DNA of 64,000 nt from Ignavibacteriales bacterium (GTDB taxonomy: Bacteria > Bacteroidota > Ignavibacteria > Ignavibacteriales > SURF-24): NCBI GenBank assembly GCA_026390815.1, contig JAPLFH010000006.1, positions 62,001 to 126,000 of the forward strand. Direction: 5' to 3'. Numbering within the stretch: the first letter of the stretch is position 1; each line of letters starts with the position of its first letter. The notes below the pieces were generated by a model. That model was given only the letters and a program-made list of their open reading frames with translations, did no database searches and was not told where the DNA came from. This document shows positions 41,612-44,220 of this stretch, one piece after another. The position numbers and the translations under genes are program-made.

Positions 41612-42754
41612 ATGTTAATGTTGTGTTCAAATAAATTTTTTCGATTAGTTTTTTTATTTTTAATCCTATTTCCATCAAACAGAATTTTTTCTGAGAATGG
41701 CAAAAAGCCAAAAAATATAATCATAATGATTGGTGATGGAATGGGGCTAAATTATATCACTGCTTCCATTCTAAACGATGATAAAAATCCTTTCAAGGAA
41801 TTTAATTCAATTGGACTTTCCATAACCTGTTCTGCCGATAATTTAATTACAGATTCTGCTGCCGGTGCTACAGCCTTAGCTTCGGGATATAAAACTAACA
41901 ATAAATATATCGGTGTAGATTCTGCAAAAATTCCACTCCTAAATATTTTTGAATTTGCAAAGAAACATAAATTATCTACGGGAGTTGTGGTTACAAGTTC
42001 TATTACTAACGCAACACCTGCCTGCTTTGTTGCACATATTGATAACCGTGCACGGGAATTTGAGATTGCAAAGCAATATGTTGAAAGTGGAATTGATATT
42101 GCCATCGGTGGAGGATTAAAATTTTTTCTTACTCAGTCCAAAGGAGGGGGAAGAAGTGATGGATTGGATTTGGTTGATTCACTAAAGACAAAAGGATATT
42201 TATTTTACAAAGACTCGGATGAATTGAAAACCTACAATGGCACAAAAAAGTTATTTGCTTTATTGGATGACGATGGATTAAAACCAGTTGGTCAAAGAAA
42301 TATTTCATTAAGCGAATTAACTACATCATCACTTAAACATCTTGAACAAAATAAAAATGGATTTGTATTGATGATTGAAGGTTCTCAAATTGATTGGGCG
42401 GCTCATGCTAATAATCAAAAGCAGATTATGCTTGAACTTACTGAGTTTGAAAGAACAATTGAATCAGTTTTAACTTTTGCAAAAAAAGATGGCAATACTC
42501 TTGTTGTAATAACTTCGGATCATGAAACTGGTGGTGCTTCAATTGTCTCTGGTAAAAATGATGGTTCAGATATAAAATTTGGCTTTCTTACATTTGGTCA
42601 TACAGCAAATTGTGTTGGAATTTTTGCTTATGGACCTGGAGAAGAAAACTTTCGAGGTATTATGAACATTAATCAGATTGGAAAAAATTTCTTTAAACTA
42701 ATTAATCCTACTAGAAATTCTAAACCAATTGTCTCTCGTACTACAACAAAATAA
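41612..42754 (+). CDS. phoA: Alkaline phosphatase (PhoA family), secreted
   Basis: The 380-residue protein has a signal peptide (hydrophobic FRLVFLFLILFPSN) and the alkaline phosphatase signatures: IIIMIGDGMGLNYI (metal Asp), LITDSAAGATALASG (nucleophilic Ser), MIEGSQIDWAAHAN, TSDHETGGAS and FGHTANCVGIF. All metal-binding positions visible in the family are kept. It removes phosphate from organic phosphoesters in the periplasm. At 380 residues it is shorter than the E. coli enzyme, lacking the crown domain. It follows ilvE by 15 bases, but the two functions are unrelated. Confidence 0.9.
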   Translation: MLMLCSNKFFRLVFLFLILFPSNRIFSENGKKPKNIIIMIGDGMGLNYITASILNDDKNPFKEFNSIGLSITCSADNLITDSAAGATALASGYKTNNKYIGVDSAKIPLLNIFEFAKKHKLSTGVVVTSSITNATPACFVAHIDNRAREFEIAKQYVESGIDIAIGGGLKFFLTQSKGGGRSDGLDLVDSLKTKGYLFYKDSDELKTYNGTKKLFALLDDDGLKPVGQRNISLSELTTSSLKHLEQNKNGFVLMIEGSQIDWAAHANNQKQIMLELTEFERTIESVLTFAKKDGNTLVVITSDHETGGASIVSGKNDGSDIKFGFLTFGHTANCVGIFAYGPGEENFRGIMNINQIGKNFFKLINPTRNSKPIVSRTTTK

Positions 42755-42815: not shown

Positions 42816-42844
42816 TTGACAAGTGCACATTTGTTTACTATTAT
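42816..42844 (+). promoter_or_regulatory. lexA promoter, sigma-70-like
   Basis: TTGACA at 42816-42821, a 17-base spacer and TATTAT at 42839-42844 give a near-consensus sigma-70 promoter. Transcription should start near 42851, leaving a leader of under 20 bases before the lexA ATG. Two palindromes overlap and follow it. Confidence 0.8.
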
Positions 42845-42865
42845 TGTAGTGAACAATTGAGCACT
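42822..42865. promoter_or_regulatory. Paired 18-bp palindromic operators at the lexA promoter
   Basis: Site 1 AGTGCACATTTGTTTACT (42822-42839) fills the -35/-10 spacer. Site 2 AGTGAACAATTGAGCACT (42848-42865) sits on the transcription start. Both fit AGTG-N2-CA(A/T)TTG-N2-(C/T)ACT, palindromic about the central base pair, with centres 26 bp apart. They probably bind LexA for autorepression. The motif differs from the E. coli (CTGT-N8-ACAG) and Bacillus (GAAC-N4-GTTC) SOS boxes. Confidence 0.7.
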
Positions 42866-42868
42866 ATA

Positions 42869-43513
42869 ATGAAAAATGAATTAACAGAAAGACAAGAAGA
42901 AGTTTTGAACTTTATTAAAGAGCATCTTAATGAAAAAGGTTATCCACCTACTTTAAGAGAAATTGGAAAGCGATTTAATATTGTTTCAACATTTGGAGTT
43001 AAAAGGCATTTAGATGCCTTAGGTAAAAAAGGTAAAATTAATGTCGACTCTAATATTAGTAGATCAATTACAATTGTAAATTTGAATCAACTAAAGGCAA
43101 AAGAAGAAAAGGAATTACAAAGAAGTCCAAATGAAATTCCGATAGTTGGTAGGGTTGCTGCTGGCTTGCCTATTTTAGCAGTTGAAAATATTGATGGTTA
43201 CTTAACAATTGATCAAAGGATAGTTAAAAATTCTAAAAATTGTTTTGCCTTAAAAGTTAAAGGTGATAGTATGATCAACGCCGGACTTTTTGAAGATGAT
43301 ATTGTTGTTGTGTCACCTCAAAAATATGCTTCTAATGGAGAAATCATCATCGCATTACTTGGAGATGATGCAACAGTAAAAAGGTTTGAAGTAAGAGGTT
43401 ATGAAACTTTTCTGGTACCGGAAAACGTTAAGTATACAGCTATACAAGTAAATGATAGAGAAGACTTTTCTATAATTGGGAAGGTTGTTGGTGTTATCAG
43501 GTGGTATAATTAA
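42869..43513 (+). CDS. lexA: LexA repressor (SOS regulator)
   Basis: The 214-residue protein has the LexA N-terminal winged helix (LTERQEEVLNFIKEHLNEKGYPPTLREIGKRFNI) and a C-terminal S24 domain. The autocleavage site is A98-G99 in RVAAGLP; the catalytic dyad is Ser134 (GDSM) and Lys171 (ATVKRF). RecA-stimulated self-cleavage relieves repression of DNA-repair genes. The start is ATG 42869; an upstream in-frame TTG lies inside the operator and is rejected. The ribosome binding site is not visible, consistent with an operator occupying the leader. Two small genes follow within 12 bases each, so lexA heads an operon. Confidence 0.92.
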   Translation: MKNELTERQEEVLNFIKEHLNEKGYPPTLREIGKRFNIVSTFGVKRHLDALGKKGKINVDSNISRSITIVNLNQLKAKEEKELQRSPNEIPIVGRVAAGLPILAVENIDGYLTIDQRIVKNSKNCFALKVKGDSMINAGLFEDDIVVVSPQKYASNGEIIIALLGDDATVKRFEVRGYETFLVPENVKYTAIQVNDREDFSIIGKVVGVIRWYN

Positions 43514-43525
43514 AAAGGAGTTAAT

Positions 43526-43774
43526 ATGAAATCTGAAATATTTTATAGCGCTATAAATAATAGAAGGAAAATAAGATTCCTTTACGGGATGGAAGAAATT
43601 ACGCTGGAACCTTACTTCATTTCGCATGATAAAACAGGTCAAAAGGTAATTTATGGACGACCGGATTTTTCAAGTTATGTTAAAAAATTTGAATACAAAA
43701 GAATTGCTAATATTAAAGTGCTTAGCAATTTAAGATTTTCTCCAATAATTCCTATTATTTCTCTTGTTAACTAA
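43526..43774 (+). CDS. Small WYL-like domain protein in lexA operon
   Basis: This 82-residue protein resembles a stand-alone WYL domain: FYSAINNRRKIRFLYGMEEITLEPYFISHD (strand pair with the conserved P), GQKVIYGRPDFS (the W-Y-L position is replaced by VIY) and KKFEYKRIANIKVL (matching the R-F-x-x-x-RI motif). WYL domains bind nucleic acids or nucleotides and regulate defence and DNA-repair systems. It has a strong ribosome binding site (AAAGGAG) and starts 12 bases after lexA. Assignment by pattern only. Confidence 0.65.
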   Translation: MKSEIFYSAINNRRKIRFLYGMEEITLEPYFISHDKTGQKVIYGRPDFSSYVKKFEYKRIANIKVLSNLRFSPIIPIISLVN

Positions 43775-43785
43775 GGAGTGATGAA

Positions 43786-44220
43786 ATGACAACTACATCG
43801 GTTCGTGAAAATATTGATGAATTGATTAAACATTTTTGGATGAATGGATATATGACTGTTAGGAGAAAGTTTGGTACATATTTACCAGAACCAACACCCA
43901 TTGGCAAATATGATGTTGATGCTGTGGGCAGATTTAAAAAAAGATTTGCCCTGGGAGTGGTATTAACTGATGAAGAGCTAAATGACAGTAAAATAAATGC
44001 AAAACTTGAGTTCCTTGCAACAAGACAAACCAAATATTCCAACAAGCGTGTTATTTTGTTTGTTGGAATTCATCCTGAAAATTTTTCCAGAGCAAGGATA
44101 GCAGTAGAAAGTTTAAGCCTTGATGCTTCTAGAAATATTAAACTTGTTATCCTAAATGAAAAATTACCTTCCACCACTAATACAGCTAAAGAGGACCATA
44201 TTCCCAATAATTTTTCATAA
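43786..44220 (+). CDS. Unknown protein, third gene of the lexA operon
   Basis: This 144-residue protein is not recognised. It reads ELIKHFWMNGYMTVRRKFGTYLPEPTPIGKYDVDAVGR, then FALGVVLTDEELNDSKINAKLEFLATRQTKYSNKRVILFVGIHP. The order (GTYLPEPxPxGxYDVDAVG, then a hydrophobic strand, a KLxFLATRQ helix and an ILFVGI strand) recalls a restriction-endonuclease-like alpha/beta fold, but the ExK motif is absent. It has its own strong ribosome binding site (TAAGGAG) 11 bases after the WYL gene. Its co-transcription with lexA suggests a role in DNA damage (inference). Confidence 0.6.
   Translation: MTTTSVRENIDELIKHFWMNGYMTVRRKFGTYLPEPTPIGKYDVDAVGRFKKRFALGVVLTDEELNDSKINAKLEFLATRQTKYSNKRVILFVGIHPENFSRARIAVESLSLDASRNIKLVILNEKLPSTTNTAKEDHIPNNFS

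What the first reader, a model, noticed from the sequence alone, without database searches (positions are those of the whole stretch)
42869..44220. lexA operon with a stand-alone WYL protein and an unknown third gene
lexA, an 82-residue WYL-like protein and a 144-residue unknown protein are separated by 12 and 11 bases, with strong ribosome binding sites for the two small genes. WYL domains sense nucleic-acid ligands in defence and repair. The third protein has a nuclease-like layout without the ExK motif. The set could be a DNA-damage-inducible module not described before.
Basis: inference. Interest (0 to 1): 0.6.

Follow-up and report, generated by a model that had tools for sequence, protein, structure and literature searches.

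The report
Conserved three-gene DNA-damage-response operon
In nearly every sampled bacterium of the order Ignavibacteriales, the gene for the DNA-damage switch LexA is followed, apparently in one operon, by two small uncharacterised genes, one for a miniature nucleic-acid-sensor-like protein and one for a nuclease-shaped protein that lacks the usual catalytic residues, which points to an undescribed part of these bacteria's DNA-damage response.

Summary
lexA (42869-43513), an 82-aa ORF2 and a 144-aa ORF3 lie 12 and 11 bases apart with AAGGAG sites. The trio is a core operon-like block of the order Ignavibacteriales, in the same order and orientation in all 37 named genomes found by an ORF3 search and in nearly every genome of a wider survey. 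Genomes without this lexA also lack ORF2: 162 of 164 agree, and both exceptions lie at contig ends. Upstream is a strongly conserved double LexA-type operator, two AGTGNNCA-NN-TGNNCACT boxes, in 74 of 75 lexA promoters. The same box precedes half of a split, DnaE2-like polymerase in 8 species. DNA-damage control is well supported, though induction is untested. AlphaFold models: ORF2 is a bare WYL (Sm-like) barrel closest to DriD, PafBC, BrxR and CapW, but without the Trp-Tyr-Leu motif or a DNA-binding domain. ORF3 has a PD-(D/E)xK nuclease fold that keeps Asp45 but has an invariant Gly where the motif's acid is expected. Most likely both are SOS-induced nucleic-acid-binding accessory proteins acting at damaged DNA; their exact target is inferred, not shown. 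No description was found in the open literature searched. New variant of a known kind.

The parts
42816..42821 (+). -35 element TTGACA of the lexA operon promoter
   Evidence: 11/12 match to the sigma-70 consensus, 17-nt spacer; present in nearly all lexA promoters of the order
42822..42839 (+). LexA box A, AGTGCACATTTGTTTACT (one mismatch to AGTGNNCANNTGNNCACT)
42839..42844 (+). -10 element TATTAT, lying between the two boxes
42848..42865 (+). LexA box B, AGTGAACAATTGAGCACT (exact match), 26 bp after box A
   Evidence: 66 of 75 unique promoters have exactly the 26-bp spacing
42869..43513 (+). lexA, canonical LexA repressor with Ala-Gly cleavage site and Ser/Lys catalytic residues
43515..43520 (+). 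Shine-Dalgarno AAGGAG of ORF2
43526..43774 (+). ORF2, 82-aa stand-alone WYL-fold (Sm-like barrel) protein
   Evidence: AlphaFold pLDDT 88.7; PDB matches DriD Z 12.6, BrxR, PafBC, CapW; weak Pfam WYL in 14 of 28 family members; PADLOC WYL E 3e-4 for the window protein
43773..43778 (+). Shine-Dalgarno AAGGAG of ORF3, overlapping the ORF2 stop codon
43786..44220 (+). ORF3, 144-aa PD-(D/E)xK-fold protein without the (D/E)xK motif
   Evidence: AlphaFold pLDDT 86.8; fold matches mostly PD-(D/E)xK proteins; residue conservation

Best explanation
This is the core SOS operon of the order Ignavibacteriales. Supported by sequence: LexA represses its own operon through two adjacent boxes that flank the -10 element. 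Following from the known LexA mechanism: damage produces ssDNA, RecA filaments trigger LexA self-cleavage, and LexA, ORF2 and ORF3 rise together. Inferred: ORF2, a bare basic WYL/Sm-like barrel without a DNA-binding domain, binds single-stranded nucleic acid or a RecA/LexA-type partner. ORF3, a basic PD-(D/E)xK-fold protein without the canonical catalytic pair, binds branched or damaged DNA without cutting it. Together they act as accessory factors at damaged or stalled forks. The likeliest roles are tuning the RecA-LexA signal or helping the LexA-controlled split polymerase (DnaE2-like halves); I cannot choose between these two.
For: Trio contiguous in 37/37 named genomes and about 60 genome-search loci. 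ORF2 and this lexA co-occur in 162 of 164 order genomes, both exceptions at contig ends. Full-length lexA is absent from five genomes without ORF2. Double operator in 74 of 75 unique promoters; of 1500 shuffles none had 7 or fewer mismatches. The same box precedes the fingers half of a C-family polymerase in 8 species, with 22 exact sites versus 1 for the reversed control. Trio bounded by gaps of about 90-900 nt to uppS and usually 70-320 nt to ilvE, while most internal gaps are 5-25 nt. WYL fold. PD-(D/E)xK fold. Both small proteins are basic, median pI 9.9 and 9.7.
Against: No expression, binding or genetic data. ORF2 lacks the WYL tripeptide and some ssDNA-binding residues known from PafB. 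ORF3 can be missing while lexA-ORF2 stay (G035), or persist without them and without a LexA box (G062). The whole ilvE-lexA-ORF2-ORF3-uppS-bamA neighbourhood is syntenic across the order, so adjacency to lexA alone is weaker evidence than it looks. The ORF3 fold match is moderate (best Z 8.1).
Confidence: 0.55

Rival explanations
1. ORF2 is specifically a LexA/RecA co-regulator: it binds ssDNA or the RecA filament and sets the threshold of LexA cleavage, a feedback arm of the switch.
For: Presence matched to lexA in 162 of 164 genomes; adjacent within the autoregulated operon; WYL-fold neighbours are DNA-damage ssDNA sensors.
Against: No interaction data; the linkage may only reflect shared transcription; key PafB ssDNA-binding residues are not conserved.
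Confidence: 0.3
2. ORF2 and ORF3 are accessory factors of a translesion polymerase, standing in for ImuA/ImuB beside a split DnaE2-like enzyme.
For: The LexA box sits directly before the fingers/OB half of a split C-family polymerase in 8 species; the two halves align to DnaE1 9-588 and 584-1038.
Against: Unlinked to the polymerase genes; ImuA/ImuB were not searched for; no fold resemblance to either was seen.
Confidence: 0.25
3. ORF3 is an active nuclease with a migrated active site (for example Asp11, Asp45, Glu64, Lys73), acting as a damage-inducible repair enzyme.
For: Asp45 is invariant, Asp11 (99%) and the acid at 64 (99%) are nearly so, and Lys73 is basic in 97%; fold neighbours include repair nucleases NucS/EndoMS and Bax1.
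Against: No (D/E)xK anywhere in the strand after Asp45; Gly57 is invariant at the expected Glu position.
Confidence: 0.2
4. Passenger genes: ORF2 and ORF3 are merely co-transcribed housekeeping genes in a stable neighbourhood.
For: The neighbourhood from ilvE to bamA is syntenic across the order; ORF3 survives without lexA in G062.
Against: ORF2 is gone in all five genomes examined that lack this lexA; the trio is separated from both neighbours by much larger gaps.
Confidence: 0.12
5. An anti-phage or mobile-element module that is SOS-induced.
For: WYL proteins often regulate defence systems (PMC9122601, PMC9122588).
Against: Core, vertically inherited single-copy genes; no viral relatives of ORF2 or ORF3; no plasmid relatives of ORF2; no defence family for ORF3.
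Confidence: 0.04

Closest known systems
Canonical LexA/SOS operons (for example lexA operons with added SOS genes)
   Same: Self-cleaving LexA, palindromic operators over its own promoter, co-transcribed extra genes
   Different: Partners are a bare WYL-fold protein and a PD-(D/E)xK-fold protein; the AGTGNNCA-NN-TGNNCACT motif was not found in the papers read, and the Bacteroidetes LexA study names CTAA-N5-TTAG and GGA-N5-TCC and does not mention Ignavibacteria (PMC8565304); the Balneolaeota motif is a direct repeat (PMC7739468)
DriD and PafBC, ssDNA-activated WYL transcription factors
   Same: WYL Sm-like barrel fold, DNA-damage context (PMC11804915, PMC12340889)
   Different: ORF2 has no wHTH, no WCX domain and no W-Y-L motif, and it sits under LexA, whereas PafBC and DriD drive LexA-independent responses
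RspWYL1, accessory protein of Cas13d
   Same: WYL protein acting as a nucleic-acid-binding accessory of an effector rather than as a transcription factor (PMC6547453)
   Different: RspWYL1 has RHH and C-terminal dimerisation domains and is CRISPR-linked
PD-(D/E)xK fold proteins (NucS/EndoMS, SdaI, XisH, RecU, Bax1; FANCM-FAAP24)
   Same: Predicted topology helix-strand-strand-strand-helix-strand, with Asp at the start of the second strand
   Different: (D/E)xK absent, Gly57 invariant; long conserved RKxGtYLPePxxiG loop between strands 1 and 2; no sequence family matched

Membership tests
LexA repressor | LexA winged-helix DNA-binding domain plus S24 peptidase domain | tested here: met
   PF01726 2e-22, PF00717 1e-33; TIGR00498 above cut-off
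LexA repressor | Ala-Gly cleavage site and catalytic Ser/Lys | tested here: met
   Ala98-Gly99, Ser134 and Lys171 invariant in 75 sequences
LexA repressor | Autoregulatory palindromic operator | tested here: met
   Two boxes 26 bp apart around the -10; 74 of 75 promoters; met as a sequence feature, binding not tested
LexA repressor | RecA-stimulated self-cleavage and damage induction | not testable with these tools
   Needs experiment
WYL domain proteins (ORF2) | Sm-like WYL barrel fold | tested here: met
   Model pLDDT 88.7; DriD Z 12.6, BrxR 11.1, PafBC 11.1 cover most of the model; best Hfq row Z 9.0
WYL domain proteins (ORF2) | Match to the Pfam WYL model | tested here: inconclusive
   14 of 28 members match weakly (best E 9e-4), window protein not; PADLOC WYL 3e-4 for the window protein
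WYL domain proteins (ORF2) | Trp-Tyr-Leu motif | tested here: not met
   Position reads Lys40-Val41-Ile42, Lys40 invariant; placed by eye against E. coli YfjR TWYLVAE, since automatic alignment failed there
WYL domain proteins (ORF2) | Conserved Arg pair for ssDNA (PafB R211/R214) | tested here: not met
   By the same eye alignment the positions read Glu56 (acidic in 84%) and Arg/Lys59 (basic in 93%), so one of the two is lost (PMC11804915)
WYL transcription factors | N-terminal HTH DNA-binding domain | tested here: not met
   82 aa, only one helix and the barrel
PD-(D/E)xK nucleases (ORF3) | Core alpha-beta-beta-beta-alpha-beta fold | tested here: met
   Secondary structure order in the model; most top structural matches are of this fold, best Z 8.1, moderate
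PD-(D/E)xK nucleases (ORF3) | Catalytic Asp at the start of strand 2 | tested here: met
   Asp45 invariant in 75 sequences
PD-(D/E)xK nucleases (ORF3) | (D/E)xK on strand 3 | tested here: not met
   Strand 53-60 has invariant Gly57 and mostly Thr/Val/Ile at 59, no D/E-x-K
PD-(D/E)xK nucleases (ORF3) | Nuclease activity | not testable with these tools
   Needs assay
ImuA/ImuB/DnaE2 mutasome | imuA and imuB genes with dnaE2 | not tested
   Only the split DnaE2-like halves were seen; imuA/imuB not searched

The most novel reading that the evidence does not exclude
Two damage-sensing logics usually separate in bacteria, LexA/RecA and WYL ssDNA sensing, are joined in one autoregulated operon: a bare WYL protein senses ssDNA and directly tunes LexA cleavage or RecA, with a dead nuclease-fold protein as its DNA platform, across a whole bacterial order.
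Probability: 0.22. Interest if true: 0.82.

Novelty: new variant of a known kind. Interest (0 to 1): 0.6.

Why it matters
If true, the SOS response of a whole order of bacteria carries two proteins that no curated family model covers adequately, one of them the smallest form of a fold known as an ssDNA damage sensor, placed directly under LexA. It gives a testable case for whether LexA/RecA and WYL sensing interact. It also supplies an operator motif with which to map the SOS regulon of Ignavibacteriales, including a split translesion-type polymerase.

Tried and rejected
Family libraries gave no convincing hit for ORF3 (Pfam, NCBIfam, PADLOC). Sequence profiles of ORF2 and ORF3 against PDB gave nothing. 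Viral relatives: none. Plasmid relatives of ORF2: none. RNA families and tRNAs in the window: none. The first operator pattern (one wide palindrome) was replaced by two 18-bp boxes after aligning promoters. The all-member alignment A1 was too divergent for a pattern scan, so the narrower A3 was used. hhalign and MAFFT could not align ORF2 to E. coli YfjR sensibly, so the WYL motif position was placed by eye. Cell-division inhibitor (SulA-like) considered: both predicted folds are nucleic-acid-binding types and no SulA-like match was seen; not tested further. Own-genome search for other WYL proteins found none.

Full report
What is there. LexA is canonical: DNA-binding and S24 domains, NCBIfam equivalog TIGR00498, and Ala98-Gly99 cleavage site, Ser134 and Lys171 invariant in 75 relatives.

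Conservation. ORF2 was found in 91 and ORF3 in 90 of 96 relatives. In a phylum-wide sample of 296 genomes ORF3 was found only inside the same order. The 37 named genomes found with an ORF3 profile are labelled Ignavibacteriales (Ignavibacteriaceae and Melioribacteraceae among them) or only Ignavibacteria, Bacteroidetes or 'bacterium'; all carry lexA-ORF2-ORF3 in that order. In 164 genomes of the order, ORF2 was detected in 146 and this lexA (E below 1e-45) in 146. They disagree in two genomes only, G380 and G383, where the partner would lie beyond a contig end (my reading of the two tables). Five genomes lacking ORF2 (G005, G064, G082, G071, G062) have only short S24/UmuD-like or phage-repressor-like matches, no full lexA. 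G062 keeps ORF3 before uppS without lexA, ORF2 or a LexA box. G035 keeps lexA-ORF2 without ORF3. So ORF2 follows lexA more closely than ORF3 does. Incomplete genomes and shared ancestry mean these are few independent losses, not many.

Operon limits. The trio sits within a wider syntenic stretch, ilvE-lexA-ORF2-ORF3-uppS-bamA-ompH. Most internal gaps are about 5-25 nt (some larger, up to 87 nt; a few genes overlap), against 92-894 nt to uppS and 70-319 nt from ilvE, more where a phosphatase or other gene is inserted. That supports a three-gene unit; transcription was not measured.

Operator. Aligned lexA promoters show TTGAC-[AAGTGNNCANNTGTTCACT]-ATATTTG-[TAGTGAACAAATGAGCACT]-ATG. Scored as two AGTGNNCANNTGNNCACT boxes, 74 of 75 unique promoters carry the pair with at most 5 mismatches in 24 positions, 66 of them at exactly 26 bp. 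Of 1500 dinucleotide shuffles, 1492 had no pair and the other 8 had 8 mismatches. In 16 genomes the exact box occurs 22 times against 1 for the reversed control. Outside lexA, 8 of the 9 sites examined lie within 30 bp of the start of the same gene, the fingers-HhH-OB half of a C-family DNA polymerase. That makes an SOS regulon with an error-prone-type polymerase the natural reading.

ORF2. The AlphaFold model (pLDDT 88.7) is one helix plus a five-stranded barrel. The best PDB matches are DriD, BrxR, PafBC and CapW; Z is 12.6 for DriD and 9.0 for the best Hfq row, so WYL proteins stand above generic Sm folds. Sequence support is weak. The W-Y-L tripeptide is replaced by K-V-I with Lys40 invariant. 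Of the PafB arginines needed for ssDNA, one equivalent position is acidic. Other basic positions are strongly conserved (Lys2, Arg13, Arg45, Lys64), so nucleic-acid binding is plausible through a changed surface but not shown. It is the only WYL-type protein noticed in this genome: a Pfam WYL search found none, ORF2 itself being below that model's threshold.

ORF3. The model (pLDDT 86.8) has the PD-(D/E)xK order of elements. Structural matches are moderate but mostly of that fold, SdaI Z 8.1 and NucS/EndoMS Z 7.9. Asp45 is invariant; the following strand has invariant Gly57 and no (D/E)xK. The simplest reading is a non-cutting DNA-binding protein. A migrated active site using Asp11, Asp45, Glu64 and Lys73 is not excluded.

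How it most likely works. Shown by sequence: LexA-type control and order-wide linkage. From established SOS knowledge: RecA-ssDNA triggers LexA cleavage and derepression. Inferred: ORF2 and ORF3 then act on ssDNA or damaged forks, either tuning RecA-LexA or assisting the split polymerase. I put about 0.9 on LexA control, 0.6 on single-stranded nucleic-acid binding by ORF2, 0.6 on ORF3 being non-catalytic, and 0.3 or less on each specific role.

Literature. No paper in the open library held both 'lexA operon' and 'WYL domain'. The three papers with both LexA and Ignavibacteria are, by title and abstract, on other subjects; one was opened. The Bacteroidetes LexA study mentions neither Ignavibacteria nor WYL. 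Subscription papers were not searchable, so absence of description is provisional.

Noticed in passing
L139:3520-5211 (G000:C9 near 80.0 kb) and L159:721-2385 (G000:C9 near 38.7 kb): A second C-family polymerase is split into two genes about 41 kb apart: an N half (PHP + palm, motif PDVDLD) aligning to DnaE1 9-588 and a C half (fingers, HhH, OB) aligning to 584-1038; no intein-like ends seen by eye. An exact LexA box precedes the C half in 8 species; none was found before the N half in this genome.
   Followed up: partly
L131, L132 (G070, G035) and second lexA matches in many genomes: A second, more distant LexA paralogue occurs in many genomes; in the two loci read the neighbouring gene looks like a DUF72-type protein and the promoter holds a different palindrome (CATACAAATGTATG), suggesting a separate regulon.
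   Followed up: no
L150: In G001 a single LexA box lies between the split-polymerase C half and a divergent Y-family (dinB-like) polymerase gene.
   Followed up: no
window 42866-42868: LexA box B ends 3 bases before the lexA start codon, leaving no room for a Shine-Dalgarno; an SD-like motif was found before only 10 of 76 lexA starts versus 40 of 76 for ORF2 and 35 of 75 for ORF3.
   Followed up: no
window 41612-42754: An alkaline-phosphatase-like gene sits between ilvE and lexA here; it was seen in only 9 of the 37 named loci, an insertion into an otherwise stable neighbourhood.
   Followed up: no
L139:2538-3217: A gene pair that looks like HEPN plus minimal nucleotidyltransferase (toxin-antitoxin-like) lies just upstream of the split-polymerase C half; by eye from the translation, no family search run.
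   Followed up: no
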